In this document: in pieces, positions 20,523-43,153 of the stretch
How positions within the stretch are numbered: position 1 is the first letter of the stretch
Layout: each line of letters begins with the position of its first letter
Assembly (NCBI GenBank): GCA_027484025.1
Contig: JAIXTI010000062.1
Location: 1-48,338 of the forward strand
DNA: 48,338 nt
Reading direction: 5' to 3'
From: a bacterium
GTDB lineage: Bacteria; Gemmatimonadota; Gemmatimonadetes; Gemmatimonadales; Gemmatimonadaceae
Notes under the pieces: model-generated
Databases searched by the model: none
What the model was told of the DNA's origin: nothing
The model's input: the letters and a program-made list of their open reading frames with translations, nothing else
Translations under genes and position numbers: made by a program

Positions 20523-20529
20523 GCGCTCC

Positions 20530-24179: not shown

Positions 24180-24308
24180 GGCAGCAAAGGTCGGGGTGCG
24201 GCTGGGTATACGCAACTCGTAACCAGATCGCGATCGTGAGGGGCGTGGAGGATGCACACGAGCCGGTCGTGGCGTAACTTTGCGCGCAGTCCCCTTCCAC
24301 TCGCCATT

Positions 24309-27231
<2,923 letters not shown>

Positions 27232-27233
<2 letters not shown>

Positions 27234-27237: not shown

Positions 27238-27246
27238 TTCGTGGTG

Positions 27247-28455: not shown

Positions 28456-28468
28456 CGCGACGTCGTGT

Positions 28469-28936
28469 CTACCGGCGCTTGCGGGCGCTGCATTTGATTT
28501 CCACGAGCGCGGCGGGCCGTGGCAGTGCCGTCACCGAGAGCGTGGCCCGCGCGGGCGGTGCGACGGGAAAGAACTCCGAATACACCGTATTCATGGCGGC
28601 GTAGTCAGCGATGTCCTTGAGAAAGACGGTGCACTCGTCGACATCGGTCATGGTGGCGCCTCCCGCTTGCAGCGCGGTGCGGATGTTCTCGAGCGTCTGC
28701 CGCGTCTGCACGGCCACGCCGCCGGCGACGATATCCTGTGTGCCCGGCTTCATGCCCGTCATCCCCGACACGAAGATCTGATCGCCGGAGCGAATGGCGA
28801 CGGAGTACGCCGGCACGAGTGGCGCCAGCCCGGGCGGGTTCAGGACCTCGCGGCCGGTGGTGCCAGTCCGGTGCGCGCACGCGGTGGTGACACAGAGCAA
28901 GCCGGCCGTTACGGCAAGTCGAATACAGGTCGTCAA
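28469..28936 (-). CDS. RidA/YjgF-family putative lipoprotein
   Basis: This is a 155-residue protein. A RidA fold (about 30-150) is recognised from IRSGDQIFVSGMTGMKPG, GGVAVQTRQTLENIRTALQAGGATMTDV and the C-terminal LPRPAALVEIKC. RidA enzymes deaminate reactive enamine/imine intermediates in the cytoplasm. The key Arg seems kept in PPARATLSV. This copy instead carries a signal peptide with a lipobox (VTTAC, Cys20), so it is predicted to be exported. The only convenient start is TTG (28936-28934); its use is not proven. It is convergent with asparaginase, 13 bp apart. Physiological substrate outside the cytoplasm is unclear. Confidence 0.8.
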   Translation of the reverse strand: MTTCIRLAVTAGLLCVTTACAHRTGTTGREVLNPPGLAPLVPAYSVAIRSGDQIFVSGMTGMKPGTQDIVAGGVAVQTRQTLENIRTALQAGGATMTDVDECTVFLKDIADYAAMNTVYSEFFPVAPPARATLSVTALPRPAALVEIKCSARKRR

Positions 28937-28964
28937 CTGCGCGCCCTCGAGAGAGTGGGTGCCA

Positions 28965-28993
28965 ACCCGGTCGGCATGGGGGAGCGACCGGGT
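28965..28993. promoter_or_regulatory. Inverted repeat in the ridA / FG-GAP divergent gap
   Basis: ACCCGGTCG (28965-28973) and CGACCGGGT (28985-28993) form a perfect 9-bp inverted repeat with an 11-bp spacer in the 131-bp gap between two divergent exported-protein genes. Symmetry and placement fit a dimeric regulator site, though a cruciform or transcript hairpin is possible. No known consensus matched by eye. Confidence 0.4.
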
Positions 28994-29067
28994 GGTGATG
29001 CCTGGCGCGCATAACGTAGCGCGCGGGGCCGGTGGCTGTTGGCGCGCTGTCGCCGTACCTTCTGCCG

Positions 29068-30240
29068 ATGAACATGCCCCCGTTCGGCCGCCGCGGGTTT
29101 CGGGCCTCTACGGCGCTTGCGCTCTGCATTGCCGGAAGCGCCGCCGTGGCTTCGCAAACCAGCGCCGCCCGCGTCTTCGAGCGCGTGCTGTTGCTCGAGA
29201 CGACCAGCGAAACGTCCGCGAGTGTGAGCCTCGGCGATATCGACGCCAATCGTACGCTCGATGTGATTCTTGCGAAGGGGCGCCATTGGCCGCTGGTCGA
29301 CCAGGTCTTGCGCAACGACGGCAAGGGGCACTTCACCACGCAGCCCCTCTCGGACGCCCCCGATCGCACCTACTCGGCGGCGCTCGCCGACCTCGATGGC
29401 GATGGCGATCTCGATATCGTGGCGAGCAACGACAAGCCAGACCGCAAGCTGATTTATCTCAACGACGGGGCGGGGCACTTTCGCGTGGGCAGTACGTTTG
29501 GGGCGCCCGAGTGGAATACGCGCTACGTCACCGTGGCTGACCTGAACGGCGACCAGCGCCCCGACTTGATCGTGGCCAACCGGAGCTCCAACCCCGCGAC
29601 GCCGCGGCCGAGTTACGTGTGCCTCAACGACGGCGCAGGTGCGTTTCCCGCATGTACGCCGCTCGCGACGCAATCGGCCACCATTGTCGTGGCCAGTGAT
29701 CTTGACGGTGACGGCAAAACCGACCTCGTGGTGCCGCACCGCGATGGTGGCCAGAACCTGATCTTCTGGAACGACGGCGCGGGCACGTTTCGTGAGCCGC
29801 CAATGCCGTTTGGTCCGCCCAAATCGCAGATTCGTGCCGCGGCGGCGGCCGACATCAACGGTGACGGCGTGACCGATGTGGTGGTGGGCGATGAACGCGA
29901 CGGACTCTTTGTGTATATGGGCGCAGGGCAGCGTACGTTCGATGCGCCGGTGGCGCTGGCTTCAGCGGGCGGGGCGCCCTATTCGGTGGCCATTGCCGAC
30001 ATGAATCGCGACGCGAAGCGTGACCTCGTGGTGGGGCGGCAGGAGGCGGTCGGGTCGGTGCTCTTCAATACCGGCGGGGCGCGTGTGCCGCGCTTTACCG
30101 ACACGCCGTGGGGAGACGGGAAGGGGTCGGTGTACGGCGTGGCCGTTGGCGATCTCGACGGCGACGGCTGGCCGGACATTGCGGCGGCGCGTTCGGAGGC
30201 GCCAAACGCGGTGTGGTTCAGCGGGGCGGCGCGTCGATGA
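29068..30240 (+). CDS. Exported FG-GAP/VCBS beta-propeller protein
   Basis: This is a 390-residue secreted or surface protein. A signal peptide (TALALCIAGSAAVASQ) ends near residue 30. It is followed by seven Ca-binding FG-GAP repeats with cores DIDANRTLD, DLDGDGDLD, DLNGDQRPD, DLDGDGKTD, DINGDGVTD, DMNRDAKRD and DLDGDGWPD, spaced about 45-60 residues apart, so a single seven-bladed propeller is likely. The repeat DxDxDG loops bind calcium; the sixth repeat, with NRDAK, is degenerate. The ATG at 29068 gives the proper signal peptide; an ATG-like codon at 29032 would add a useless tail. Such proteins are usually adhesion or ligand-binding modules. No partner is evident. Confidence 0.85.
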   Translation: MNMPPFGRRGFRASTALALCIAGSAAVASQTSAARVFERVLLLETTSETSASVSLGDIDANRTLDVILAKGRHWPLVDQVLRNDGKGHFTTQPLSDAPDRTYSAALADLDGDGDLDIVASNDKPDRKLIYLNDGAGHFRVGSTFGAPEWNTRYVTVADLNGDQRPDLIVANRSSNPATPRPSYVCLNDGAGAFPACTPLATQSATIVVASDLDGDGKTDLVVPHRDGGQNLIFWNDGAGTFREPPMPFGPPKSQIRAAAAADINGDGVTDVVVGDERDGLFVYMGAGQRTFDAPVALASAGGAPYSVAIADMNRDAKRDLVVGRQEAVGSVLFNTGGARVPRFTDTPWGDGKGSVYGVAVGDLDGDGWPDIAAARSEAPNAVWFSGAARR

Positions 30241-30282
30241 TGCGTATCGCGAACTCTGCCCTGGAATGAGCGGCCATAACTC

Positions 30283-30984
30283 GTGAGAGCAACGGTGCCG
30301 AACCGCCGCAACTACTATCGTGTGTTGCACGTGCAGCCCGATGCGCCGCCGGAGGTGGTGCGTGCCGCGTACCGCGCGCTCATGGCGCGGCATCACCCCG
30401 ACCAGGGGGGTGACCATGAGCAGGCGGTGCTCCTGAACGAGGCGTGGGCCGTGCTCGGCAATGCCACGCGCCGCGCCGAGTATGACGCGCGCCGCGAGCG
30501 CGCGGGGCAGCGTCACCGGACGGGAGCAGAAGCGCGGCGGGAGGCGGCTGCCGACAAGGGTCCGCCCCCGCCCCAGGCGTCGGCCGATCAGTGCGCGTTC
30601 TGCGACCAAGCCAATACCGTTGGCGCTGTGGTGTGCGCGCGCTGTACGGCACCGCTGGCCCGTCCCACGCGGCCGGCGTCGCACCGGGCGTCGTCGGGAA
30701 CCGGCGAGCGCCGCACGCTGCCGCGTGTCTCGCGCGCCGATTGGGGGACGGTCCGGGTCCACTGGACGAGCGAACCGTTGGATATCCGGCTGCGCAACCT
30801 GTCGGTGGGAGGGGTGAGCTTCTACACGGGGGCACCGCTGGTGGCCGGCGCGCGGGTGCGGGTCACCGCGGCGGCGTTCGATGCCGTGGTGGAGGTGGTG
30901 CAGTGCAATCGCCGCGAGAGCGTGTTCGTGGTGCAGGGCGCGTTCGTGACGGTGGGGTTTACTTCACGGCGGCAGAGTCGCTGA
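30283..30984 (+). CDS. J-domain / zinc-ribbon / PilZ fusion protein
   Basis: This is a 233-residue predicted cytoplasmic protein with three modules. Residues 9-70 are a J domain with the HPD motif (38-40) in ARHHPDQGG, which stimulates the ATPase of a DnaK-type chaperone. Residues 104-121 hold a zinc-ribbon with C104xxC107 and C118xxC121. Residues 143-233 are a PilZ domain, and both c-di-GMP binding motifs appear: RxxxR at 144-148 and NxSxxG at 172-177. Start is GTG at 30283. It thus links chaperone recruitment to a second-messenger receptor. I know of no characterised protein with this order. It lies 43 bp after the FG-GAP gene and 86 bp before the kinase array. Confidence 0.85.
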   Translation: MRATVPNRRNYYRVLHVQPDAPPEVVRAAYRALMARHHPDQGGDHEQAVLLNEAWAVLGNATRRAEYDARRERAGQRHRTGAEARREAAADKGPPPPQASADQCAFCDQANTVGAVVCARCTAPLARPTRPASHRASSGTGERRTLPRVSRADWGTVRVHWTSEPLDIRLRNLSVGGVSFYTGAPLVAGARVRVTAAAFDAVVEVVQCNRRESVFVVQGAFVTVGFTSRRQSR

Positions 30985-31000
30985 ACTGAGTCGTTGAAAT
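30975..31000 (+). repeat. Tandem 13-bp repeat upstream of the kinase array
   Basis: GAGTCGCTGAACT (30975-30987) is followed directly by GAGTCGTTGAAAT (30988-31000), 11 of 13 identical, spanning the stop of the J-PilZ gene. GACTCTG follows at 31001-31007 and again at 31030-31036. CAGAGTC (30973-30979) also pairs with GACTCTG at 31001, which may form a stem. The repeated GAGTC/GACTC core suggests a regulator site or attenuator at the head of the kinase array. Confidence 0.4.
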
Positions 31001-31021
31001 GACTCTGACCCTGTTAATTAT
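30994..31021 (+). promoter_or_regulatory. Candidate sigma-70-like promoter for the kinase array
   Basis: TTGAAA (30994-30999) and AATTAT (31016-31021) with a 16-bp spacer lie 50 bp before the GTG at 31071. It overlaps the tandem GAGTC repeats, so a repressor or activator could act there. The region 30985-31070 is the only sizeable gap before five tightly spaced genes, hence a likely array promoter. Confidence 0.4.
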
Positions 31022-31070
31022 GAGCGATAGACTCTGCCGCTCAATGACGTCCGCGTTTGCTCCCTTCTAA

Positions 31071-33500
31071 GTGACTGATCTCCGCACCCAACTCCAAACC
31101 ACGCTTGGCGACGGCTACACCCTCGAGCGCGAGCTCGGTGGTGGCGGGATGTCGCGCGTGTTCGTGGCGCATGAGAATGCGCTGGGGCGCACGGTCGTCG
31201 TGAAGGTGATCGCCCCCGAGCTGGCCGAAGGGGTGAGCGCTGAGCGTTTCGCGCGCGAAGTGAAGCTGGCGGCGCGGCTGCAGCAGGCGAACATCGTGCC
31301 TGTGCTGAGCACGGGCAGCTCTGGATCATTGCCGTATTACACCATGCCGTTCGTCGCTGGCGAGTCGCTGCGGGCGCGACTGGCCAACGCCGTACCGCTC
31401 ACGATGTCGCAATCGCTCAACGTGCTGCGCGACGTCGCCCGTGCGCTGTCGTACGCGCATGGACAGGGTGTGGTGCATCGGGACATCAAGCCGGAGAACA
31501 TCCTGCTGTCGGGTGGCACCGCGGTGGTGACGGACTTCGGCATTGCGAAGGCGCTCAGTGCGTCGCGCACTATCGGCGACGGTGGTGCCGCCGCAGAAAC
31601 GAGTGCGTCGCTCACGCAAGCGGGTGGGTCAATAGGCACGCCCGCCTACATGGCTCCCGAGCAGGCGGTGGGTGCCGACGTCGATCAGCGGGCCGACATT
31701 TACGCGTGGGGTGTGCTGGCGTACGAACTGCTCACGGGCGCTCACCCCTTTTCGGGCAAGGCGAACTCGGCGCAGATGATCGCGGCGCATCTCTCGGAAG
31801 TGCCCCTGCCGCTCACGCAGCGCAATACCGCGTTGCCGACAGCACTGAGTGACCTGGTGTTACGGTGTCTCGAGAAGGATGCCGCCCATCGTCCGGCGAA
31901 TGCGGACGAAGTCTTGCAGAGCCTCGATAGCGTGGTGACACCAACGGGATCGACGGGCTCCCGTACGGGCGGCACGGTGACTCCGGCCCGTGATCGACGT
32001 ACGACCATGCTGATCGCGGGCGGCGTGCTCGCAGCGGCGGTCGCGGTGGCGCTGATGGTGATGAAGCCCGAGGACACCGCCGCATCGTCCGTGGGCGTGG
32101 TGGCCGGCGCGGCGTCGGTCGCACCGAACCGCGCCATCGCGGTGTTGCCACTCGCCAACCTGAGCGGCGACAAGGCCGACGACTTTTTCGGTATTGGCCT
32201 TGCCGAGGAGATGACGCGCGCATTGTCGAAGACGGGCGTGCGCGTGATTGGCCGATCGAGTGCCGGTGCCCTGCAAGCGCGCGGCCTCGACGAAAGTGCG
32301 ATTGCGCGTGAGCTGGGCGTGGGGTCGTTGCTCACCGGCAGCGTGCAGCGAGCCGCAGGGCAGGTGCGGGTGAACGTGTCGCTGGTGTCTGCCACCGACG
32401 GTGCCGTGACGTGGACGGAGAAGTACGACCGCCCACTCACCAACGTGTTCGCGCTGCAGGACGAAATCGCGCGTGCGGTGGCCACCAAGCTGCTCGGGAC
32501 GCTCGGTGGAACGAGCGCGGCGCAGGCCACCCGTGTGGAAACCACCGACCCCGAAGCGTACGCGTGGTATCTGCAAGGCCAAGTACTGTTCGGCCGGCGT
32601 ACCGCGCAAACCGTACGTCAATCCATCGCGCTGTTCGAGCGCGCGGTCGCGCGTGATCCGCAGTTTGCGCGCGCGCAGGGCGCGCTGGCGTTGGCCATCT
32701 CGGCGATCCCGTTCTACGAACAGGGTTCGGCGCGCACCACGGCCCCCATGGCCATTGCCGCGGCCCGACGCGCGATTGCCATCGATTCCACGGTGGCGGA
32801 AGCGTGGGGGGCGATTGCCTCCGCTAAGTCGAGTCTGTGGGCGAATCACGAGGCCGACGCCAACTATCGGCGAGCGCAGATGCTCGACTCCAGTATCGCG
32901 ACTCTGTGGGGTTGGCACGCGCTGAACCTCATTCACATGGGTCGCTTTGAGGAGGCCCGCGAACGGACCGCGCGGGCGGTCGCGGCCGAACCCGCTTCAC
33001 TCATCGCGCACACGTGGGCTGCGCAGCTGCTCATGACGGAGCGTCGCTACCGTGAGGCCGACTCGGCCACGCGCGCGATTCTGGCGATGGACTCGACGTA
33101 CGCGTTGGCGCTCGACGCGCGCGGTGAGGTGCTGAGCTACCTCGGCCGGCACGACGAAGCGATCGCGATGCTCACGCGTAACCTCGCTCAGCTCCCCGCC
33201 GATCAACCCAACCAGACCGAGGGCATTCTCGCGTATGTGCTAGCGCGTGCGGGAAAGCCCGCCGAGTCGCGCGCCGCCATGAATCATCTGCGTCGCGTGA
33301 ACGGTGGCGAGCTGCCGGCCATGGCCGTGCTGGCGGCGACGCTCGAGGTGCTTGGTGATCATGCCGGCGCCGTGGAGCTGATCGCGCGGGCCGTGAAGCA
33401 GCCGGACAATTGGCTGCAGATGTACAATCGCGCCGAGCGCTATGATGCGCTGCGCAAGGATCCGCGCGCGGATGCGATCATGAAGAGCATCGAGCAGTGA
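31071..33500 (+). CDS. Receptor Ser/Thr kinase, array member 1 (TolB-like + TPR exterior)
   Basis: This is an 809-residue one-TM kinase from GTG 31071. The kinase domain (about 15-290) is complete: G-loop at 22-28, Lys45, HRDIKPEN with Asp138, DFG at 155-157, GTPAYMAPEQ. The membrane helix spans about 311-331. Outside lie a TolB/FlgO-like domain (about 355-475, IAVLPLANLSGDKADDFFGIGLAEEMTRAL, then LTGSVQRAAGQVRV) and TPR helices (about 490-800). The substrate and signal are unknown. Its TGA overlaps the next GTG (GTGA), so it is coupled to member 2. Its C-terminal region differs greatly from the other members although the kinase halves remain close. Confidence 0.92.
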   Translation: MTDLRTQLQTTLGDGYTLERELGGGGMSRVFVAHENALGRTVVVKVIAPELAEGVSAERFAREVKLAARLQQANIVPVLSTGSSGSLPYYTMPFVAGESLRARLANAVPLTMSQSLNVLRDVARALSYAHGQGVVHRDIKPENILLSGGTAVVTDFGIAKALSASRTIGDGGAAAETSASLTQAGGSIGTPAYMAPEQAVGADVDQRADIYAWGVLAYELLTGAHPFSGKANSAQMIAAHLSEVPLPLTQRNTALPTALSDLVLRCLEKDAAHRPANADEVLQSLDSVVTPTGSTGSRTGGTVTPARDRRTTMLIAGGVLAAAVAVALMVMKPEDTAASSVGVVAGAASVAPNRAIAVLPLANLSGDKADDFFGIGLAEEMTRALSKTGVRVIGRSSAGALQARGLDESAIARELGVGSLLTGSVQRAAGQVRVNVSLVSATDGAVTWTEKYDRPLTNVFALQDEIARAVATKLLGTLGGTSAAQATRVETTDPEAYAWYLQGQVLFGRRTAQTVRQSIALFERAVARDPQFARAQGALALAISAIPFYEQGSARTTAPMAIAAARRAIAIDSTVAEAWGAIASAKSSLWANHEADANYRRAQMLDSSIATLWGWHALNLIHMGRFEEARERTARAVAAEPASLIAHTWAAQLLMTERRYREADSATRAILAMDSTYALALDARGEVLSYLGRHDEAIAMLTRNLAQLPADQPNQTEGILAYVLARAGKPAESRAAMNHLRRVNGGELPAMAVLAATLEVLGDHAGAVELIARAVKQPDNWLQMYNRAERYDALRKDPRADAIMKSIEQ

Positions 33501-35953
33501 GCGATCTCCGCGCGCAACTCCAATCGACGTTGGGCGACGGCTACACCCTCGAGCGTGAACTCGGCGGTGGCGGCATGTCGCGCGTGTTCGTGGCGCGCGA
33601 GAACGCGTTGGGACGCGAAGTAGTCGTGAAGCTACTCTCTCCTGAGCGCGCCGCGTCGCTGAGCGCCGAGCGTTTTGCGCGCGAGATCAAGCTCGCCGCC
33701 GCGCTACAGGACCCGCATATCGTGCCGGTGCTGACGGCGGGTACCACCAGCGAAGGGCTGCCCTACTACACCATGCCCTTCGTGCGCGGCGACTCGCTGC
33801 GCGCGCGACTCGTGGTCGGTGCGGTGCCGGTGACCGAGGCGCTCGGCATTCTGCGCAACAGCGCGCAGGCGCTGGCGTATGCGCACGAGCGCGGCATCGT
33901 GCACCGCGACATCAAGCCGGAGAATGTGCTCTTGTCGCGTGGTACGGCCGTGGTGACCGACTTCGGTATTGCCAAGGCACTGTCGGCCTCCAGCACCAAG
34001 GCCGAGGGCAACACGCTCACGTCGCTGGGCACCTCCATTGGCACGCCGGCGTACATGGCACCGGAGCAGGCGCTCGGCGATGCGAACACTGATGCGCGCG
34101 CTGATCTGTATGCGTGGGGCGTGGTGGCGTACGAACTGCTGGCGGGCGCGCATCCGTTTGCCGCGCGGACTACGCCGCAGGCGATGGTGGCGGCACACAT
34201 CAGCGAAGCGCCGGCACCGCTCGATGCTGCGCGCCTTGGTGTGCCGCACGACGTCGCCGCGCTGGTCATGCAGTGTCTCGAAAAGGACCCTGCGAAGCGC
34301 CCGCCGAGTGCCGATACGCTGCTCACGCGACTGGCAAACGTACAGACGCCGAGCACCGAAACGCCGGCGTCGCGCCCCACGCGTTCGAACCGATCCGTGC
34401 TGGTCGCGGCGAGTCTCGCGGTGCTGCTCGGCGCCGCGGCGCTCTTCGCGTGGGGTGTGCGCACACGGGATCCGGCATCAGCAGACACGGACAGCACGGC
34501 GTCGACGGATACCCCCAAGACCATTGAAACCCTCGCGGTGCTGCCGTTCGTGAACGTGGGCGGAGACGCCAAAGACGAGTACTTCTCCGATGGCATCACC
34601 GATGAACTCGCCAACGCCCTCGGCAAGCTCCCCGGTCTGCGGTTGGCCGGTCGCAGTTCCGCCTTCGCTTTCAAGGGCAAGAACGTGAGCGCGAAGGAGA
34701 TCGGCCAGCAGCTGGATGTCGCCGCGCTGATTGAAGGCACGGTGCGTCGCGCCGGCGGCCGGGTGCGCGTCACCGTGCAACTCACCAGTAGTGTCGATGG
34801 CAAGGCGCTCTGGCAGAACAGCTACGAAAACGACAAGGGTGACGTGTTTCAGGTGCAGGACGAAGTGACCGCCGCGATCGTGAGTGCCGTGTCGCCCACA
34901 CTGCGTGGCACGAGCGTCGCCTCGACCGCGGTAGCGAATCGCGGCACACGCGACACCCTCGCGTACGATCTGTACCTGCAAGGGAACTACCTGTTCGCGC
35001 GACGCGATCCAGCGTCGCTGTTGCGCGCGATCACGGTCTATCGTGCCGCCATCGCCCGGGATCCGGTGTTCGCCCGCGCCTACGCCGCACTGGGCGGGGT
35101 GTACTCCGTATTGCCCGACTACGTGGACACGATCAATGTGAGCGCGTCGATGGCGGAGGCGAAGGCGCAGGCGCGTCGTGCGCTGCAACTCGATTCCACC
35201 GTCGCCGACGCCTACCTCGTCCTGGGTGCTGTCGGGATCCGAGAAGGTGAGAGCCTCACGATCGCAGAGATGAACCACAATCGGGCGCTGCGCCTGGAGC
35301 CGAACAATCCGTTAGCGCACTTCCGGCTCTCAGTCGCGATGACCATGCGGGGGAATCTCGATTCTGCGTGGGTCGAACTGGGGCGGGCCCGCGCGCTCGA
35401 TCCGATTTCTGCGCCCATCGCGAATCACGAGGCGCGCCTGCTCCAGTACCGCGGCGATCTTCCGGCGGCGCGTCGATCAGGCGAGCAGCTGCTGCAGCGC
35501 GAAGAGCTGAGCGGCTGGCCACGCGTGTTGTTAGCCACCACGTTGACCTTCAGCGGCAGTCCGGATAGCGCGCTCGCTACGGTACGACCAATTCTCGACG
35601 TGCTCCCCGAAGCCCGCGGCAGCGAGCTATTTGCCTTGGCGGCTGCCGGACGCTGGAGTGAGGCGGAGCAACGACGCGATCAGATGATGCGCCTCCGTGG
35701 CCGGAGCGGATGGCGGGATGACCTGTGGATGGCGGCCATGGTCTTCGGCGAGTACGACCGGGCGATGGATCTGCTGGAGGCCGCATGGGATCGCGACCTG
35801 TTTCACCGCTTTTACTTCATCACCCCCACCTGCGACCCGCTCACCATCCCGCTGCGCAACAACCCACGTTTTGTCGCGCTGCTCGCGCGGAGCGGGATGA
35901 AGCGCTGTAGCAATACGACGCCAATGAAGTGGCCGATCGCGCCGCGGCGGTGA
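33497..35953 (+). CDS. Receptor Ser/Thr kinase, array member 2 (TolB-like + TPR exterior)
   Basis: This is an 818-residue kinase that begins at GTG 33497, overlapping the previous stop. Kinase residues 15-280 match member 3 with about 23 differences in the first 280 positions, counted by eye. All catalytic motifs are present (Lys45, HRDIKPEN, DFGIAK, GTPAYMAPEQ). The membrane helix is at about 300-321. The exterior begins with ETLAVLPFVNVGGDAKDEYF, a TolB-like domain (about 345-465), and continues as TPR repeats that share little with member 3. Four bases separate it from member 3. This kinase pair is probably a recent tandem duplication followed by sensor divergence. Confidence 0.92.
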   Translation: MSDLRAQLQSTLGDGYTLERELGGGGMSRVFVARENALGREVVVKLLSPERAASLSAERFAREIKLAAALQDPHIVPVLTAGTTSEGLPYYTMPFVRGDSLRARLVVGAVPVTEALGILRNSAQALAYAHERGIVHRDIKPENVLLSRGTAVVTDFGIAKALSASSTKAEGNTLTSLGTSIGTPAYMAPEQALGDANTDARADLYAWGVVAYELLAGAHPFAARTTPQAMVAAHISEAPAPLDAARLGVPHDVAALVMQCLEKDPAKRPPSADTLLTRLANVQTPSTETPASRPTRSNRSVLVAASLAVLLGAAALFAWGVRTRDPASADTDSTASTDTPKTIETLAVLPFVNVGGDAKDEYFSDGITDELANALGKLPGLRLAGRSSAFAFKGKNVSAKEIGQQLDVAALIEGTVRRAGGRVRVTVQLTSSVDGKALWQNSYENDKGDVFQVQDEVTAAIVSAVSPTLRGTSVASTAVANRGTRDTLAYDLYLQGNYLFARRDPASLLRAITVYRAAIARDPVFARAYAALGGVYSVLPDYVDTINVSASMAEAKAQARRALQLDSTVADAYLVLGAVGIREGESLTIAEMNHNRALRLEPNNPLAHFRLSVAMTMRGNLDSAWVELGRARALDPISAPIANHEARLLQYRGDLPAARRSGEQLLQREELSGWPRVLLATTLTFSGSPDSALATVRPILDVLPEARGSELFALAAAGRWSEAEQRRDQMMRLRGRSGWRDDLWMAAMVFGEYDRAMDLLEAAWDRDLFHRFYFITPTCDPLTIPLRNNPRFVALLARSGMKRCSNTTPMKWPIAPRR

Positions 35954-35957
35954 CCAC

Positions 35958-38387
35958 ATGACTGACCTCCGCACCCAACTGCAAATCACCCTCGGCGACG
36001 GCTACACGCTCGAACGTGAGCTCGGCGGGGGTGGCATGTCGCGCGTGTTCGTGGCGCGCGAGAACGCGTTGGGGCGCGAGGTGGTGGTGAAGGTGCTCTC
36101 CCCCGAGCGTGCCGCGTCGCTGAGTGCGGAGCGTTTTGCGCGCGAGATCAAGCTCGCCGCCGCGTTGCAGGACCCGCACATCGTACCGGTGCTCGTAGCG
36201 GGCACCACGAGTGAAGGGCTCCCGTATTACACCATGCCCTTCGTGCGCGGCGACTCGCTGCGCGCGCGGATGGTGGCGGGCGCCGTAACGGTGCCCGAGG
36301 CCCTTGGCATTCTGCGCAACATCGCGCAGGCGCTGGCCTACGCGCACGAGCGCGGTATCGTGCACCGCGACATCAAGCCGGAGAACGTGCTGCTGTCACG
36401 CGGCACGGCGGTGGTCACCGACTTCGGCATTGCGAAGGCACTGTCGGCTTCGACCACCAAGGCCGAGGGCAACACGCTCACGTCGGTGGGCACCTCCATT
36501 GGCACGCCGGCGTACATGGCACCGGAGCAGGCGCTGGGCGATGTGAACACCGACGCGCGCGCCGACCTGTATGCGTGGGGCGTGGTGGCGTACGAGCTGC
36601 TCACGGGGGCGCATCCGTTTGCCACGCGGAGCACACCGCAGGCCATGGTGGCGGCGCACATCAGTGAAGCGCCGCCGCCGCTCGACGCCGTGCGCCTTGG
36701 TGTGCCGCGGGAGGTCGCCGCGCTGGTGATGCAGTGTCTGGAGAAGGACCCGGCGCAGCGCCCCTCGAGTGCCGATGCACTACTCACGCGACTGGCGAAT
36801 GTGACGTCGGGGAGCGTCGAGCAAGCAGTGGCGCCGAGTCGGCGACGAGGGCCGTGGGTGCTGGGGAGCGTGTCGGTGGCGGTGCTGGCCATTGCCGGCT
36901 GGGCACTGCTCCGTCCGCGCGCGACCGCGCCGAGCGCGTCGCAAACGGCGGCCGTCGCGGCCGACAGCGCATCGAATGTTCGGTCGCTCGTGGTGCTCCC
37001 CTTCGAAAGCGTGGGCGGCGACACCGCCAATACGTACTTCGCAGAGGGTATGGCGGATGAACTCTCGAACGCCCTCACCAAGGTGCCGGGACTGCAGCTC
37101 ACGGCCCGTAGTTCTGCCGCGGCATTTCGTGGCAGGAGTGCCTCCGTGCAAGCGATCGGAAGGGCACTGAACGTAGGCGCGGTGCTCGAAGGCTCGGTGC
37201 GCCGTGCCGGTGGGAAGCTGCGTGTCTCCACGCAACTCACCAACGCCAGCACGGCCAAGGTGATGTGGAGTGAGAGCTACGAGCGCGATGCGACGGACGT
37301 TTTTGCCGTGCAGGATGACATTGCCAAAGCGATTGTCAGCGCGCTGCGCGTCACGTTGGCCGGTGGCAACACAAGCATTGCTCCTGCCGCGCGCGGTACC
37401 AGCAATCTCGAGGCGTACGACCTCTACCAGCGCGGCATGTATTTCTACGATCGCCGTGGGCCCGGGCTGTTCAGAGCGCGCGAGTATTTCGAGCAGGCCA
37501 TTCAACAGGATCCGAGGTTCGCCCGCGCCTATGCGGGGCTGGCATTGACGTGGCTCGCTCTCCCCATCTACACCGATGCGTTGATGCGAGATGCCCTTCC
37601 GCCGGCGCTTGACGCGAGTAAGCGGGCGGTGGCGCTCGACTCGATGTCTGCCGAGAGTTGGGTCGCCTTGGGGCTGACGCACACGCATCAACATCAATGG
37701 CAAGCGGCCGATGTCGAAACGGCACGTGCTGTGCAACTCGATCCGCGTAACGCGGCCGCCTGGCTCTATCGTCAGGGTCTCCTGAGTGCGATCGGAAGAG
37801 TGGCGGAGGCCGCCGAAGCAGCGCGCCGGGCCGCGGCATTGAATCCCATGAGCGTCGGCACCCTGGGCAGCGCCTCGATGGCGCTATCGCTGGCCGGTCG
37901 GCATGCGGAGGCGATGGCGCTGAGCGACCGCGCGTGGGAGATCGACTCCACGCTGGGCACGCCGATCACCACCTCTCTCCTCGCCCTCGTGGACGGTGGG
38001 CAGCGCGCTGAGGCGTCGCGACGCGCGGAGGTCGTGCTGCGGACCGCGACTCGGCCGCAGGTGCTCGCACGCGCTACGTACGTGCTCGGTGTGGCCGGTG
38101 AACGAACGCGCGCATTGACGATGGCACGGCAGTTGACTGAGCGGTTCGCCGGCAGCGATGAGGGAGCGAATAGCCTTGGCGCGGCGTGGTTGGCCGTCGG
38201 GGACACCGCCCGCGCGCTGACCTTGCTGGAGCGAGCCGTCGCGATTCCGGACTATTTCGTTCTCTCAAACCTGGGCTTGCGTATGTACGATCCCGTCCGG
38301 GCCACCCCGCGCTTCGCGGCCCTGGTACGCAAACTCGGTCTGGACGTGGCGTTGTTCACATCACCCAACGGCGGGCGGCCGCGCTAG
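35958..38387 (+). CDS. Receptor Ser/Thr kinase, array member 3 (TolB-like + TPR exterior)
   Basis: This is an 809-residue kinase from ATG 35958. The cytoplasmic half is about 92% identical to member 2, including the ERGIVHRDIKPENVLLSRGT stretch. The juxtamembrane linker differs (SGSVEQAVAPSRRRG), as does the membrane helix (about 301-320). The exterior TolB-like domain starts at VVLPFESVGGDTANTYFAEG. The TPR part is a distinct set of helices with MFARA-like pairs (DPRFARAYAGLALTWL). Active-site residues are intact. After its stop, 70 bp lead to vapB. It shows that whole kinase modules have been copied while ectodomains changed. Confidence 0.92.
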   Translation: MTDLRTQLQITLGDGYTLERELGGGGMSRVFVARENALGREVVVKVLSPERAASLSAERFAREIKLAAALQDPHIVPVLVAGTTSEGLPYYTMPFVRGDSLRARMVAGAVTVPEALGILRNIAQALAYAHERGIVHRDIKPENVLLSRGTAVVTDFGIAKALSASTTKAEGNTLTSVGTSIGTPAYMAPEQALGDVNTDARADLYAWGVVAYELLTGAHPFATRSTPQAMVAAHISEAPPPLDAVRLGVPREVAALVMQCLEKDPAQRPSSADALLTRLANVTSGSVEQAVAPSRRRGPWVLGSVSVAVLAIAGWALLRPRATAPSASQTAAVAADSASNVRSLVVLPFESVGGDTANTYFAEGMADELSNALTKVPGLQLTARSSAAAFRGRSASVQAIGRALNVGAVLEGSVRRAGGKLRVSTQLTNASTAKVMWSESYERDATDVFAVQDDIAKAIVSALRVTLAGGNTSIAPAARGTSNLEAYDLYQRGMYFYDRRGPGLFRAREYFEQAIQQDPRFARAYAGLALTWLALPIYTDALMRDALPPALDASKRAVALDSMSAESWVALGLTHTHQHQWQAADVETARAVQLDPRNAAAWLYRQGLLSAIGRVAEAAEAARRAAALNPMSVGTLGSASMALSLAGRHAEAMALSDRAWEIDSTLGTPITTSLLALVDGGQRAEASRRAEVVLRTATRPQVLARATYVLGVAGERTRALTMARQLTERFAGSDEGANSLGAAWLAVGDTARALTLLERAVAIPDYFVLSNLGLRMYDPVRATPRFAALVRKLGLDVALFTSPNGGRPR

Positions 38388-38445
38388 ACAGCGTACTGGT
38401 ATCAGGGTATTCTTCAATGCTACCGTTTTTCTTTACTTCTACACC

Positions 38446-38453
38446 GGTGGAGG
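38446..38453 (+). promoter_or_regulatory. Strong ribosome-binding site of vapB
   Basis: GGTGGAGG at 38446-38453 sits four bases before the vapB ATG (38458), far stronger than sites of the neighbouring kinases, consistent with an independently acquired module. The 70-bp gap before it includes a T-rich stretch (GTTTTTCTTTACTTCT at 38424-38439) that may hold the promoter. Confidence 0.55.
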
Positions 38454-38457
38454 CGCC

Positions 38458-38730
38458 ATGGCGGTCAACATCAAGAACGAGCGGGTCGAACGGCTCCTCG
38501 ACGAGGTCGCTGCCCTGACCGGTGAGACGAAAACCGAGGCGATCCGCCGCTCGCTCGAGGAGCGACGCGATCGTCTGGCGCGCCGCGCGGCCGAGGTCAG
38601 TCCCGCCGATCGGTTGCGTCGGTTACTCGAACGCGAAGTGTGGCCCGCCATCCCGGCGTCCGTGCGCGGCACGCGCCTCAGTAAAGCCGAAGAGGAGCAG
38701 ATCCTCGGCTATGGCCCCGACGGCGTGTGA
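38458..38730 (+). CDS. vapB: VapB-type antitoxin (Rv0623-like)
   Basis: This is a 90-residue antitoxin. The N-terminus MAVNIKNERVERLLDEVAALTGETKTEAIRRSL is the short DNA-binding ribbon-helix-helix-like VapB form related to Rv0623, which represses its own operon. The middle and C-terminus (about 40-90) with RAAEVSPADRLRRLLEREVW should wrap the toxin PIN domain. ATG 38458 has a strong Shine-Dalgarno. vapC begins seven bases after its stop, the classic arrangement in which antitoxin precedes toxin. It lies between kinase members 3 and 4 on the same strand, so transcription from the array could also reach it. Confidence 0.88.
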   Translation: MAVNIKNERVERLLDEVAALTGETKTEAIRRSLEERRDRLARRAAEVSPADRLRRLLEREVWPAIPASVRGTRLSKAEEEQILGYGPDGV

Positions 38731-38737
38731 TTGGACC

Positions 38738-39124
38738 ATGATCATCGACAGCTCCGCCCTGGTGGCCATCGTGTTGCAGGAACCCGAGGCCGAGCAGTTG
38801 CTCAGCCGCATGCGTGAGGCCTCGACGCTGGCCATCGGTGCCCCGACGCTGCTCGAAACCGGGATCGTGCTTTCGGCGAGACTGCACGACGACGCTCGCG
38901 GACTGCTGGCCCGTCTGCTTCAGGAAAGCGGTATCGCGGTGATGGATGTGACCGAGGCGCATTTCGGTGTCGCCATGGATGCCTGGCTGCGCTACGGGAA
39001 GGGACGCCACCCGGCGGCGCTCAACTTCGGCGACTGCCTGTCGTACGCGGTCTCCGTGGTGGCCGGTGAGCCGCTGCTTTGTGTCGGCGACGATTTCCCG
39101 CAGACGGATTGCGTGCTCGCATGA
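38738..39124 (+). CDS. vapC: VapC-type PIN-domain toxin ribonuclease
   Basis: This is a 128-residue PIN-domain RNase toxin. The acidic active-site residues are visible: Asp4 in MIIDSSALVAI, a Glu in TLLETGIVLSARL (about residue 42), Asp in NFGDCLSYA (about 98), and Asp in VGDDF (about 116). VapC toxins cleave tRNA or rRNA and are neutralised by the cognate VapB. The ATG at 38738 is the conventional start because Asp4 must be near the N-terminus. It ends 10 bp before the fourth kinase start. All key residues are present, so it should be functional. Confidence 0.9.
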   Translation: MIIDSSALVAIVLQEPEAEQLLSRMREASTLAIGAPTLLETGIVLSARLHDDARGLLARLLQESGIAVMDVTEAHFGVAMDAWLRYGKGRHPAALNFGDCLSYAVSVVAGEPLLCVGDDFPQTDCVLA

Positions 39125-39134
39125 GCGCGCGCCC

Positions 39135-41612
39135 ATGAGCGATCTCCGCACGCAACTCCAATCCACCCTTGGCGACGGGTACACGCTCGAGCGTGAGCTT
39201 GGCGGTGGCGGCATGTCGCGCGTGTTCGTGGCGCGGGAGAACGCGTTGGGGCGCGAGGTGGTGGTGAAGGTGCTGGCGCCTGAGCTCTCAGCGAGTGTGA
39301 GCGCCGAGCGCTTCACGCGCGAGATCGCGACGGCGGCACGGTTGCAGCAGGCGAACATCGTGCCGGTGCTGGCGGCGGGTACGTCGGACGGCGTGCCGTA
39401 CTACACGATGCCGTATGTGAAAGGCGAGTCGCTGCGGGCGCAGATGGCGCGTGGTGTGGTGTTGTCGATGCACGACCGGCTCAACGTATTGCGCGATGTG
39501 GCGCGCGCGTTGGCGTATGCGCACGGCGAGGGAGTGATTCACCGCGACATCAAACCGGACAACATCCTGCTGTCGGCCGGCACCGCGGTGGTCACCGACT
39601 TCGGCATTGCGAAGGCCATTAGCGCGGCGCGTACCCACGATGGCCCGCCGGCGAGCACCAACGACGGGACGCTCACCCAAGCTGGAAGCAGCATTGGCAC
39701 CCCTGCGTATATGGCGCCCGAACAGGCGGTGGGTGATGCCGTAGACCATCGCGCCGACATCTACGCATGGGGCGTGGTGGCGTACGAACTGCTCAGCGGG
39801 GCGCATCCGTTTGCCGGCAAGACGGGCACGTCGCAACTGATCGCCGCGCATCTCACGGAAACGCCCGTTGCGCTCGCGGTGCGATCGCCGGATGTGCCGC
39901 GCGAGGTGGTGGCGCTCGTGATGCAGTGTCTCGCCAAGCATCCGGGTGATCGTCCGGCCTCGGCTCCTTCGCTACTGGAACAGCTTGCCACGGTCTCGAC
40001 ACCCAGTGCCGAGCGCGCGGCTGCGTCGACGGGCGCAGCAACCGGTTCGCGTTCTTTCACGATGGTGGCGGCAGCGATGGTGCTGGTGGCAGGTGCCGCG
40101 GCAGTCTGGTTCATGAACGGTCGGGGTGGCGATACCGAGACGCGCACACTCACTGCGGCAGCTGCGCCAACGGAATCGCTCTCATCGCTCGCCGTGCTCC
40201 CCTTCGTGAACACGAGCGGCGATGCGAAGGACGAATACTTCAGCGACGGTCTGACCGACGAACTCGCGCATGCGTTGTCCAAGCTGCCCGGGCTGCGTCT
40301 GGCGGGTCGCTCCTCAAGCTTCTCGTTCAAAGGCAAGACGATTCTCGCGCCCGACGTGGGCAAGGCGTTGGGTGTAGGCGCAATCGTAGAAGGCACGGTG
40401 CGCCGCGCCGGTGATCGCATTCGCCTCACAGCACAGCTCACCAGTACGCGCGACGGACAGGTGCTCTGGAGCGATGCCTTCGAGCGCACCGGCGCCGATG
40501 TGTTTGCAGTGCAGGATGCATTTACGACGGCGATTGTAGCAGCGCTCACGCCGAGACTCGCGCAAGCCGCGGGCGTGATCGCGCAGCCCAATCAGGCCAG
40601 CGTGGCCGCGCGCGGCACCACCGATGCGGTTGCGTACGATCTCTATCTCAAAGGTCGCTACTACTGGGCGCAGCGAGGCGCCGGTCCACTGGATAGCGCC
40701 GTGAAGTATCTGGAGGCGGCGGTACAGCGTGACAGCATGTTCGCGCGCGGCTGGGCGGCATTGGCCTTGGCGTATGTGATCAGGCCCAACTTCAATTCCG
40801 ACGTGGATTTTGCACCGTCCGATACGAAGGCGGAGGTCGCGGCGCGTCGGGCACTGGCGCTCGATTCCACGAGTGCGGATGCACACGCGGCCGTCGGCTT
40901 TGCCGCTATCCGCCAGTTCGACTTTGAGAAGGCCGCGTCATCCATGGCCACCGCGCGACGACTCGAGCCGGCCAGCGCCATTGCCGCGCATTGGTCGGCC
41001 ATCGCGTATCACGTAGTGGGTGATACGGCGCAGGCCGATGCGCAGATGGAGCGGGCCCTCACGCTGGACCCGCTCTCTCCGACCACGTTCAATACGCGCT
41101 CCCGCATGCTCTCGGAGCGGCGGCAGTTCTTGCGGGCCCTCGAGAACGACGCGAAGGCGGCGCAACTGAGCACGACCTTCCTGACCAATTCGGCCCCGCC
41201 ATTGATTTGGGCAGGAATGGCGGACAGTGCATTTCGCGTGACGAAACGCGCCCCCGCGTCCGATCGGACTCGAGGTCGATTGGGGTACGCCATTCTGGCC
41301 GCCGCAGCCGCGGGCGAATGGGACGCCGCGCGTGCGTTGCAGCGGCAGATCGCCGCGCGCGGTCCCGACGTGCGATCGTTCGATCGCGCAGTTGCCGCGC
41401 TGGTGTTCGGTGATCGCGCAACGGCAGCCGCCCTGTTCGTCGATCACCTCGAGCATGACGGCGCACTCGCGAACCTGGCCTTCTCCGTTTGCTATCCGCC
41501 GTACGACGGCGTTCGCGCCGAGCCCGCGTGGAAAGCATTCCTCGCGCGACACCAGTTGAAGGAGTGCCCGTACAGCTCGCCGTGGCCCATTGGGCCGGCG
41601 CCCGCACGGTAA
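39135..41612 (+). CDS. Receptor Ser/Thr kinase, array member 4 (TolB-like + TPR exterior)
   Basis: This is an 825-residue kinase from ATG 39135, 10 bp after vapC. The kinase domain has intact motifs: Lys45, HRDIKPDNILL, DFGIAKAISA and GTPAYMAPEQ. Its middle, with RLNVLRDVARALAYAHGEGV, resembles member 1 rather than members 2 and 3, while its N-terminus matches all of them. The membrane helix is at about 313-332. The TolB-like domain (SLAVLPFVNTSGDAKDEYFSDGLTDELAHAL) is near that of member 2. The TPR region is distinct. The mosaic similarity suggests gene conversion or recombination among array members. The following GH1 gene starts 41 bp later in the same direction. Confidence 0.92.
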   Translation: MSDLRTQLQSTLGDGYTLERELGGGGMSRVFVARENALGREVVVKVLAPELSASVSAERFTREIATAARLQQANIVPVLAAGTSDGVPYYTMPYVKGESLRAQMARGVVLSMHDRLNVLRDVARALAYAHGEGVIHRDIKPDNILLSAGTAVVTDFGIAKAISAARTHDGPPASTNDGTLTQAGSSIGTPAYMAPEQAVGDAVDHRADIYAWGVVAYELLSGAHPFAGKTGTSQLIAAHLTETPVALAVRSPDVPREVVALVMQCLAKHPGDRPASAPSLLEQLATVSTPSAERAAASTGAATGSRSFTMVAAAMVLVAGAAAVWFMNGRGGDTETRTLTAAAAPTESLSSLAVLPFVNTSGDAKDEYFSDGLTDELAHALSKLPGLRLAGRSSSFSFKGKTILAPDVGKALGVGAIVEGTVRRAGDRIRLTAQLTSTRDGQVLWSDAFERTGADVFAVQDAFTTAIVAALTPRLAQAAGVIAQPNQASVAARGTTDAVAYDLYLKGRYYWAQRGAGPLDSAVKYLEAAVQRDSMFARGWAALALAYVIRPNFNSDVDFAPSDTKAEVAARRALALDSTSADAHAAVGFAAIRQFDFEKAASSMATARRLEPASAIAAHWSAIAYHVVGDTAQADAQMERALTLDPLSPTTFNTRSRMLSERRQFLRALENDAKAAQLSTTFLTNSAPPLIWAGMADSAFRVTKRAPASDRTRGRLGYAILAAAAAGEWDAARALQRQIAARGPDVRSFDRAVAALVFGDRATAAALFVDHLEHDGALANLAFSVCYPPYDGVRAEPAWKAFLARHQLKECPYSSPWPIGPAPAR

Positions 41613-41653
41613 CTTCCGTCCAGCGACTTCCTCTCGATCCCACACTCCCCGCC

Positions 41654-43153
41654 ATGGACCGCCGGCACTTTCTCACCGCCACCGCACTCGGCGCGACCGC
41701 CAACCAGCTCCTGCCCGGCTTGCTCGACGGGCAGCCCGGCCCTGACCTCGCGGGGAGTGACCCGCAGGCCGCGCTGCAGAAGGCATCGCGGACGTTCCCG
41801 ACCAACTTCTGGTGGGGAGCGGCGACGGCGGCCTACCAACTCGAAGGCGCTGCCGCCGAGGATGGACGCAAGCCGAGTATCTGGGACACGTTCAGCCACA
41901 CGAAGGGAAAAGTCGTCAACGGCGACACCGGCGACGTCGCCTGCGATCACTACCATCGTTACAAGGACGATGTGAAGCTGATGGCCGACCTCGGCGTCAA
42001 GCACTACCGCTTCAGCGTCTCGTGGCCGCGCGTGATTCCCGACGGACGTGGCGCCGTCAACCAGAAGGGACTCGATTTCTACAAGCGCCTCTGCGACGAG
42101 CTGCGCGCACACGGCATCACGCCGCACGCCACGCTCTACCACTGGGATTTGCCGCAGGCGCTGCAGGACAAGTACAAGGGATGGCAGAGTCGCGAGATCG
42201 TGAACGACTTCGCCGACTACGCCACCGCGGTGGTGAAGGGACTTGGCGATCGTGTCACGCATTGGATGACACTCAATGAGATCCTGACCTTCTCGGTGGT
42301 GGGCTATGGAGTCGGCAACACGGCACCGCATGCGCCGGGACTCGCGCTGGCACGCAAGAAGGACCAGCTTCAGATCATCCACCACGCGCTCTTGGCGCAT
42401 GGACGCGCCTGCCAAGCCATTCGGGCGGCGGCGCCGGGCAAGTGTTCGGTGGCGATTGCAGAGAACTTCTCGCCGTATGTGCCCGTTGTCGAAACGCCGG
42501 AACACATCGAAGCCGCTCGTTTGGCGTTCACCCGCACCGACTTCAACGGGGCGATCATCACGCCGTTGCTCACCGGCAAGTACGACCCGTACTGGCTCGC
42601 CCAACAAGGTGCCGAAGCGCCCGACGTGAAAGCCGGTGACATGGAGCTCATTCACCAGAAGCTCGATGCCCTCGGCTTCAACTGCTACACCGGCACGTAC
42701 GTGCGCGCGGCGAACACGCCCGCGGGCTTCGAGACGCTCGACACGTTCGAAGGCTACCCGCGCATGGCGCTTCCGTGGCTCACCTTGGTGCCCGAGTCGA
42801 TCTACTGGGGCATCCGCATGATCACCGATGCGCTCAAACAAAACACGTTGCCGATCTTCATCAGCGAGAACGGCTGCGCCGATAGCGGACCGGTGAGCAC
42901 CACGCGCGAGATGCAGGACATCGACCGCGTGATGTACCTCAGGCAGTACCTGCGGCAAGTGCAGCGCGCCGTGGACGATGGATATCCCGTGGTCGGCTAC
43001 TTCCCATGGAGCCTGATGGACAACTTCGAGTGGGCCGAAGGCTACACGAAGCGGTTTGGCCTGGTGCACGTGGACTACGCGACCCAGAAGCGTACGCCGA
43101 AGCTCAGCTACCGGTGGTTTCAGCAGGTGATCAAGAGCGGGGTGGTGAAATAG
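41654..43153 (+). CDS. GH1 family beta-glucosidase-like enzyme with Tat signal
   Basis: This is a 499-residue glycoside hydrolase family 1 enzyme. The catalytic pair is present: acid/base Glu209 in MTLNEI (the family usually has NEP here) and nucleophile Glu405 in ISENG. Other family landmarks are FWWGAATAAYQLEGA, HYRFSVSWPRVIPDG and LYHWDLPQAL. The N-terminus MDRRHFLTATALGATA has a twin-arginine pattern and a hydrophobic stretch, so it is probably exported folded, unusual for GH1, which is mostly cytoplasmic. ATG 41654 is chosen because it begins this signal. The likely substrates are beta-linked disaccharides, but the aglycone specificity is unknown. It overlaps or abuts the oxidoreductase gene and faces a PTS cluster. 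Confidence 0.92.
   Translation: MDRRHFLTATALGATANQLLPGLLDGQPGPDLAGSDPQAALQKASRTFPTNFWWGAATAAYQLEGAAAEDGRKPSIWDTFSHTKGKVVNGDTGDVACDHYHRYKDDVKLMADLGVKHYRFSVSWPRVIPDGRGAVNQKGLDFYKRLCDELRAHGITPHATLYHWDLPQALQDKYKGWQSREIVNDFADYATAVVKGLGDRVTHWMTLNEILTFSVVGYGVGNTAPHAPGLALARKKDQLQIIHHALLAHGRACQAIRAAAPGKCSVAIAENFSPYVPVVETPEHIEAARLAFTRTDFNGAIITPLLTGKYDPYWLAQQGAEAPDVKAGDMELIHQKLDALGFNCYTGTYVRAANTPAGFETLDTFEGYPRMALPWLTLVPESIYWGIRMITDALKQNTLPIFISENGCADSGPVSTTREMQDIDRVMYLRQYLRQVQRAVDDGYPVVGYFPWSLMDNFEWAEGYTKRFGLVHVDYATQKRTPKLSYRWFQQVIKSGVVK

What the first reader, a model, noticed from the sequence alone, without database searches (positions are those of the whole stretch)
31071..41612. Array of four receptor kinases with near-identical kinase halves and divergent sensors
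Seen: four adjacent GGGGMSRVF kinases (809, 818, 809 and 825 residues), with overlaps or gaps of a few bases except around vapBC. Members 2 and 3 differ at about 23 of the first 280 residues by eye, yet their TolB-like and TPR exteriors differ widely. Inference: the kinase modules are kept alike by duplication or gene conversion while sensors diversify, so several signals could enter one common phosphorylation output. This is the best candidate for an undescribed system here.
Basis: partly seen in the sequence, partly recalled or inferred. Interest (0 to 1): 0.72.

Follow-up and report, generated by a model that had tools for sequence, protein, structure and literature searches.

The report
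Receptor kinases that swap outer halves
A bacterium related to Gemmatimonas carries a row of four membrane receptor kinases, two of which share almost the same inner enzyme but have very different outer halves; comparison with relatives suggests that inner and outer halves are exchanged between genes, so that receptors can be rebuilt around a conserved enzyme.

Summary
The title overstates: only this pair is close (91% aa); the other five are 65-70%. Identity collapses near codon 280, about 20 residues before the membrane helix. At fourfold sites K2/K3 differ at 51/170 in the kinase and 65/113 in the exterior. The kinase value equals that between species, so recent conversion is not shown here. 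The arrays of three relatives lack K2; two also lack K4. Elsewhere exchange is clearer: in relative G006 two neighbours share a 938-nt stretch at 97.7%, with flanks of 44% and 48%, and G007 has a comparable pair. The reverse occurs too: an exterior 83% alike on kinases 60% alike. Best explanation: kinase and exterior modules of PknB-like receptor kinases reassort by homologous recombination through the kinase segment. Against: kinase trees alone reject nothing, and 15 of 28 same-exterior pairs also show the silent-site gap. A common output is unproven. New variant of a known kind (compare Campylobacter Tlp2/3/4).

The parts
31071..33500 (+). K1: receptor kinase, 809 aa; kinase about residues 1-285, TM 313-331, FlgO-like plus TPR exterior
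   Evidence: counterparts in G009, G042 and (627 aa) G006
33497..35953 (+). K2: receptor kinase, 818 aa; TM 300-318
   Evidence: absent from the array stretches of G009, G042 and G006; no exterior above 42% in the other genomes of the genus at E 1e-60
33497..34336 (+). K2 kinase module (codons 1-280), 91% aa identical to the K3 module
   Evidence: homology with the single K3-type kinase of G009 and G042 stops at 34323
34514..35950 (+). K2 exterior: alpha/beta domain about residues 345-468 (called FlgO/TolB-like by alignment with K1), then TPR helices about 487-800
   Evidence: AlphaFold2 model, mean pLDDT 82.5; TPR hits among PDB sequences; relatives P0002-P0004
35958..38387 (+). K3: receptor kinase, 809 aa; TM 300-318
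   Evidence: counterparts in G009 and G042
35958..36797 (+). K3 kinase module (codons 1-280)
38458..38730 (+). VapB-like antitoxin (PF07704)
   Evidence: same place in G009
38738..39124 (+). VapC-like PIN-domain toxin (PF01850)
   Evidence: same place in G009
39135..41612 (+). K4: receptor kinase, 825 aa; TM 308-326; exterior 41% alike to that of K2
   Evidence: counterpart in G042, absent from the G009 and G006 stretches
34323..36797 (+). segment (K2 exterior plus the second kinase module) present here but not in the G009 and G042 arrays, bounded by kinase direct repeats: the layout left by unequal crossing over between kinase modules
   Evidence: window 24395-34323 is collinear with G009, and from 35964 the window matches the same G009 kinase again; likewise for G042
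24252..27233 (+). further kinase upstream (993 aa), also variable between relatives
   Evidence: present in G009; no full-length counterpart in the G006 and G042 stretches

Best explanation
An array of PknB-like (Hanks-type) transmembrane Ser/Thr kinases with mostly TPR-bearing exteriors, in a family whose inner kinase half and outer half are exchangeable modules. The conserved kinase-coding segment is the stretch through which genes recombine: unequal crossing over adds or removes an exterior (the layout by which K2 differs from G009 and G042), and conversion can overwrite a neighbour's kinase (best seen in G006). Over time a few kinase types each carry several exteriors, and one exterior type is found on several kinases. 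Shown: array turnover; neighbours by kinase and by exterior that disagree, in both directions; an internal near-identical tract in G006; different silent divergence of the halves in many paralogue pairs. Inferred: RecA-type recombination as the agent; K2 arriving through the shared kinase type; the exterior as a ligand sensor; K2 and K3 feeding partly shared targets.
For: K2/K3 fourfold 51/170 kinase, 65/113 exterior, p 4.7e-6. Survey of 143 loci: 169 same-locus kinase pairs, 104 long enough in both halves; 21 have kinases at least 85% alike, with exteriors 25-50% alike, pooled fourfold 984/3054 against 1176/1932, one-sided Fisher p below 0.01 in 20 of 21 (12 of the 21 lie in one contig of G021, 8 arrays in all, K2/K3 with a cut exterior being one). 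G006 pair 577450/582176: 97.7% over 938 nt (aa 14-326), flanks 44% (39 nt) and 48% (120 nt). G007:C458 genes 1 and 2: kinase 95%, fourfold 28/170, exterior 31% and 43/70. Order K1-K2-K3-VapBC-K4 in G000, K1-K3-K4 in G042, K1-K3-VapBC in G009, K1 alone in G006. Reverse direction: G009/G042 K3 kinase 52/173, exterior 14/297, p 6.7e-14; P0115 exterior 83% but kinase 60% to K4; P0124/P0185 83% and 70%; P0185 kinase 95% to P0212 with exterior 36%. Sensor data reject K2-type plus K3-type as one clade (AU p 3.8e-4).
Against: Kinase data do not reject one K2-type clade (AU p 0.438), one K3-type clade (0.432) or the sensor-tree clade of K2-type with P0006/P0007 (0.195). The silent-site control is mixed: of 28 pairs with the same exterior type, 12 show no difference between halves, 15 have the exterior more diverged, 1 the kinase; so in distant pairs part of the gap may come from a slower kinase or from saturation. 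No significant recent tract between K2 and K3 (p 0.026 and 0.0625, uncorrected). Run tests give no pair below 0.05 in G041:C1, G000:C158 or G042:C1, and only uncorrected p from 0.0066 among 231 pairs in G021:C45. Strong neighbour discordance in only 9 of 168 proteins; an exterior at least 10 points more alike than the kinase in only 30 of 14365 usable pairs. Direction in G006 could not be polarised.
Confidence: 0.68

Rival explanations
1. Plain old tandem duplication: the kinase half stays alike only because it changes slowly, at silent sites too, and the exterior changes fast. No recombination between genes.
For: Some array pairs have 96% aa kinases with fourfold 54/154, so constraint clearly contributes. 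Kinase trees cannot reject clades that follow the exteriors. In 15 of 28 same-exterior pairs the exterior is more diverged at silent sites, among them 11 of the 12 pairs of K3, G009 and G042 against G014, G043, G017 and G023.
Against: Close same-exterior pairs diverge equally in both halves (12 of 28). Some pairs have the exterior more alike than the kinase (G009/G042 K3). The G006 tract starts and stops inside the genes. G007 has fourfold 28/170 in the kinase with 43/70 in the exterior.
Confidence: 0.2
2. K2 came in as a whole gene from another lineage with the same kinase type and sits beside K3 by homologous integration; no exchange of halves happened in this genome. (A sub-case of the best explanation, so the odds overlap.)
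For: K2-type proteins P0002 and P0003 have the same architecture; the K2 kinase is as close to G009 K3 (48/171) as to its neighbour K3 (51/170).
Against: It does not explain how one kinase type came to carry two exterior types in the first place, nor the G006, G007, P0115 and P0185 cases. K2 could also be old and lost from G009 and G042.
Confidence: 0.35
3. Assembly or binning chimeras produce the appearance of swapped halves.
For: The window genome is a 291-contig assembly; near-identical repeats are prone to misassembly.
Against: The K2 architecture recurs in P0002 and P0003; K1-K3 order recurs in G009 and in the one-contig genome G042; G006:C1 is a 790-kb contig; the P0115 cluster has 133 member sequences.
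Confidence: 0.05

Closest known systems
Campylobacter jejuni chemoreceptors Tlp2, Tlp3, Tlp4 (PMC9769880, passages)
   Same: Paralogous membrane receptors with identical signalling domains and periplasmic sensor domains about 30% alike; sensor and signalling trees differ; copies vary between strains
   Different: Chemoreceptors, not kinases; three genes rather than long arrays; the text's one use of 'gene conversion' is about loss to a pseudogene
Plant receptor-like kinase clusters such as Arabidopsis OAK (PMC3136440, passages)
   Same: Tandem receptor kinases with gene conversion inside the cluster and diverged exteriors
   Different: Eukaryotic; the identical 2.7-kb tract described covers mainly the exterior and ends 60 bp into the kinase, the opposite half
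PknB-type bacterial Hanks kinases (PDB 5u94, 1o6y and others, by sequence)
   Same: Kinase domain (K2 kinase E 3.9e-48); single membrane helix (PknB topology recalled)
   Different: TPR-type exterior; no PASTA domain among the Pfam hits
Long-lasting concerted evolution in prokaryotes (PMC6053082, abstract and passages)
   Same: Homogenisation of paralogues by gene conversion
   Different: 26 genes, 22 of them for parts of stable complexes; 'kinase' does not occur in the main text
Domain shuffling in histidine kinases (recalled; search listing only)
   Same: Sensor parts recombined with kinase parts
   Different: Two-component histidine kinases, not Ser/Thr receptor kinase arrays

Membership tests
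Hanks-type (PknB-like) Ser/Thr receptor kinase | Pkinase domain with catalytic Lys, HRD, DFG and APE motifs | tested here: met
   (E 8e-43 to 2.2e-45 for the four); one search shows the VVVK, HRD 136 and DFG 155 positions; one search shows APEQ in all four
Hanks-type (PknB-like) Ser/Thr receptor kinase | Single membrane helix between kinase and exterior | tested here: met
   hydropathy maximum between 300 and 331 in all four, searched only in residues 250-420; helix 301-319 in the K2 model, at low pLDDT
Hanks-type (PknB-like) Ser/Thr receptor kinase | Kinase activity on proteins | not testable with these tools
   needs purified protein
PASTA-type PknB/StkP kinases | Extracellular PASTA repeats (recalled definition) | tested here: not met
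   no PASTA hit at E 0.001 for K1-K4
Paralogues under concerted evolution by gene conversion | Paralogues in one genome more alike than orthologues between genomes, in the exchanged part | tested here: not met
   K2/K3 kinase 51/170 against 58/172 and 62/169 for K3 between species: no difference
Paralogues under concerted evolution by gene conversion | Near-identical tract bounded by divergent sequence on both sides within paired genes | tested here: inconclusive
   met for the G006:C1 pair 577450/582176; not for K2/K3
Modular receptors with reassorted halves (works like Tlp2/3/4) | Trees or neighbours of the two halves disagree | tested here: met
   sensor data reject kinase-tree groups, p 3.8e-4 and 2.5e-5; reversed neighbours. 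The five tests on kinase data reject nothing (p 0.074-0.463)
Common-output signalling array | All four kinases phosphorylate the same targets | not testable with these tools
   indirect only: DFG-PEQ lengths of 41, 34, 34 and 40 residues

The most novel reading that the evidence does not exclude
In Gemmatimonas and kin the long arrays of receptor kinases (10 genes in 32 kb in G006, 24 kinase ORFs in about 91 kb in G021) form a receptor-diversification system: the kinase segment is the recombination handle that keeps a few output modules uniform while exteriors are gained, lost and exchanged between neighbours and between species.
Probability: 0.3. Interest if true: 0.7.

Novelty: new variant of a known kind. 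Interest (0 to 1): 0.5.

Why it matters
If right, it explains how bacteria with tens of Hanks kinases (50 Pkinase matches in this genome, 49 over the cut-off) build new receptors without losing a working output, and it gives a bacterial counterpart to plant receptor-kinase clusters. It makes a testable prediction: kinases of one type with different exteriors should share substrates. My ten paper searches listed no report of this for bacterial Ser/Thr kinases; they cover open-licence papers only, four of them returned no paper at all, and only the top of longer lists was seen.

Tried and rejected
Recent conversion between K2 and K3 was tested with silent-site runs and not supported (in the same eight-sequence test G014/G017 gave p 0.002 and K3/G014 p 0.008). 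A crossover point inside the G009 kinase (5' part like K2, 3' part like K3) was looked for; matches to K2 and K3 were even along the length (54 against 45 sites). Polarising the G006 tract through orthologues failed: the best full-length hits in six other genomes were 46-49% for one gene and 57-58% for the other. P0185's own genome was sought in 179 family genomes; the best match was 68%. That P0185 and P0212 are neighbours rests only on equal longest-contig lengths (7187). Rfam (gathering threshold) and tRNA scans of the window gave nothing. A first motif listing of own-genome kinases was too narrow and kept only 9; the broader listing took loci from L068 up. A fold search of the K2 model was not run, since the kinase would dominate the hits.

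Limits of the counts: survey pairs within one array are not independent; regions were fetched because they hold kinases; of 169 pairs 65 were dropped for a short alignment in one half; in lower bins of kinase identity the one-sided test passed in 13 of 21 (75-85%), 17 of 28 (65-75%), 3 of 22 (50-65%) and 0 of 12. Fourfold counts use only codons whose first two bases agree. Run-test p values are per pair and uncorrected; with 45 pairs in G006 only the 22-site runs (p 0.0005 and 0.001) would come near 0.05 after correction, while the 63-of-69 run (0.0015) would be about 0.07. The 189 proteins come from the listed top 120 of two searches plus five of the window and G042, so they are no random sample.

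Full report
What is there. The window is contig 223 of a 4.7-Mb, 291-contig genome with 50 Pkinase matches. Four receptor kinases lie at 31071-33500 (K1), 33497-35953 (K2), 35958-38387 (K3) and 39135-41612 (K4). Each has a Hanks-type kinase (for K2 closest to PknB among solved chains), a hydrophobic stretch within 300-331 and an exterior. For K2 the AlphaFold2 model (mean pLDDT 82.5) shows an alpha/beta domain at about 345-468 and a TPR helix array at 487-800. vapB and vapC lie between K3 and K4.

How alike the kinases are. K2 and K3 differ at 23 of 280 residues, while K1/K2, K1/K3, K1/K4, K2/K4 and K3/K4 are 65.3, 66.1, 70.3, 67.9 and 68.6% identical in the kinase. So one of six pairs is close. 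In the exterior the closest pair is K2/K4 (40.8%), not K2/K3 (35.1%), so the two halves group differently. From DFG to PEQ there are 41, 34, 34 and 40 residues, which makes two loop classes.

Age of the halves. At fourfold codons K2/K3 differ at 51/170 in the kinase and 65/113 in the exterior (p 4.7e-6). As a control all 28 pairs with the same exterior type were tested. In 12 the halves do not differ, for instance K3 G000/G009, K4 G000/G042 and all six pairs within G014, G043, G017 and G023. In 15 the exterior is more diverged: 11 of the 12 pairs of K3, G009 and G042 against the G014 group, and four of six K1 pairs. In one, G009/G042 K3, the kinase is more diverged (52/173 against 14/297). So close pairs show no faster silent change in the exterior, but distant ones do; that may be exchange of kinases between species, or saturation and a slower kinase. 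The silent-site gap alone is therefore not proof. Silent divergence in eight flanking genes runs from 0.14 to 0.31 for G000 against G009 or G006, apart from 0.08 in one gene, and from 0.26 to 0.43 against G042. The K2/K3 kinases (0.30) fall in that range, so their likeness is about as old as the species.

Turnover of the array. G042 has K1-K3-K4, G009 K1-K3-VapBC and G006 only a 627-aa K1, in the same setting; a GH1 gene follows in G000, G009 and G006, with no hit in the G042 stretch. Among the genomes of the genus searched (30 with the own one) no other exterior reaches more than 42% identity to that of K2 at E 1e-60. Window 24395-34323 is collinear with G009 up to codon 276 of K2, and from 35964 the window matches the same G009 kinase again, so the extra segment is bounded by kinase repeats. 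Unequal crossing over between kinase modules leaves such a layout, as a gain here or as losses there; I cannot tell which.

Other carriers of the modules. K2-type exteriors occur in P0002 (89%), P0003 (86%) and P0004 (67%), on kinases 89-93% alike to both K2 and K3. Among 20 rows with this kinase type (two of them identical) kinases are 88-100% alike while exteriors run from 31 to 100%. A kinase tree does not separate K2-type from K3-type rows, but its data also do not reject such clades (AU p 0.438 and 0.432), nor the sensor-tree clade of K2-type with P0006 and P0007 (0.195), nor two further groups (0.463, 0.074). The sensor tree separates them fully, and its data reject K2-type plus K3-type as one clade (p 3.8e-4) and the kinase-tree clade that includes P0129 (p 2.5e-5). 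The trees are one-sided evidence.

Replication in other arrays. In 143 loci, 169 same-locus kinase pairs were compared, 104 of them long enough in both halves. Twenty-one have kinases at least 85% alike; their exteriors are 25-50% alike (the 50% is K2/K3 with a cut exterior), and 20 of 21 differ between halves at fourfold sites, one-sided p below 0.01; the exception is a pair of L162. Twelve of the 21 come from one contig of G021. The clearest case is G006:C1, where ten kinases lie between 565 and 598 kb. Genes 577450 and 582176 are 97.7% identical over 938 nt (residues 14-326), with flanks of 44% (39 nt) and 48% (120 nt); fourfold 10/161 in the kinase. A stretch that starts and stops inside the genes is the mark of conversion or double crossover, not of whole-gene duplication. 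A third gene shares a shorter silent run with both (22 sites, p 0.0005 and 0.001, uncorrected). Exteriors of the three genes examined there match PD40 repeats, so the pattern is not tied to one exterior kind. In G007:C458 two neighbours have kinases 95% alike (28/170 fourfold) and exteriors 31% alike; both kinases are K4-type (84 and 85%) and one exterior is K4-type (65%). There the K4-type kinase is the one carried twice, where in the window it is the K2/K3 type. The run test shows no pair below 0.05 in G041:C1, G000:C158 and G042:C1, and in G021:C45 nothing that would survive correction.

Reversed pairs. If kinases were merely slow, an exterior should not be more alike than its kinase. Among 14365 usable pairs of 189 proteins, 30 have an exterior at least 10 points more alike; in the usual direction 111 of 428 pairs with kinases at least 80% alike have exteriors of at most 40%. 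P0115 has a K4-type exterior (83%) on a kinase 60% alike to K4. P0185 has a K3-type exterior (83% to P0124) on a kinase 95% alike to P0212 and P0202, with the switch between residues 281 and 360. P0141 has a K4-type exterior (72%) on a K2/K3-like kinase (79%). Strong neighbour discordance is not common: 9 of 168 proteins.

Mechanism and function. The simplest account is homologous recombination through the conserved kinase segment, within arrays and between genomes. The agent is inferred. That the exteriors bind ligands is inferred from their place and diversity. That K2 and K3 share targets is inferred from 23 differences in 280, of which two (S166/T166 and L177/V177) lie between DFG and PEQ. 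One output for all four is unlikely given the loop lengths, but is untested.

Comparison with the known. The closest parallel read is C. jejuni Tlp2/3/4, with identical signalling domains and sensors about 30% alike (PMC9769880, passages). Plant receptor-kinase clusters show conversion inside tandem arrays (PMC3136440, passages). In the Gemmatimonadota survey PMC10581226 'kinase' occurs twice, for acetate kinase and polyphosphate kinase. I judge this a new variant of a known kind, of moderate interest: reassortment is well supported as a whole, but the K2/K3 case itself is old and the window alone would not show it.

Noticed in passing
L196-L198, L079, L213, L084, L214 (G021:C45 92801-183425): 24 kinase ORFs within about 91 kb in one relative, 23 of them on one strand; five in L197 have kinases 88-96% alike with exteriors 27-34% alike.
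   Followed up: partly
L068 (G009) and L069 (G042), K3 exterior: K3 exteriors of two species nearly identical at fourfold sites (14/297) while their kinases differ (52/173), suggesting recent transfer of the 3' part; the change lies near codons 340-380.
   Followed up: partly
L070:7100-8983 (G006): K1 counterpart of 627 aa with part of the exterior missing or replaced.
   Followed up: no
38458-39124: VapBC-like pair inside the array, kept in the same place in G009; no such hit in the G006 and G042 stretches.
   Followed up: partly
22650-25004 (-) and 24252-27233 (+): Two further kinase ORFs that overlap by about 750 bp as listed; the minus-strand one has its kinase at residues 510-779, and its true start is probably further in.
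   Followed up: no
41642-43153: GH1 glycosidase gene next to K4, about 96% identical in G009 and G006; no hit in the G042 stretch, whose whole genome was not searched for it.
   Followed up: no
16672-21378: FecR-like, TonB-receptor-like and DUF4249 genes in a row, as in an outer-membrane uptake locus.
   Followed up: no
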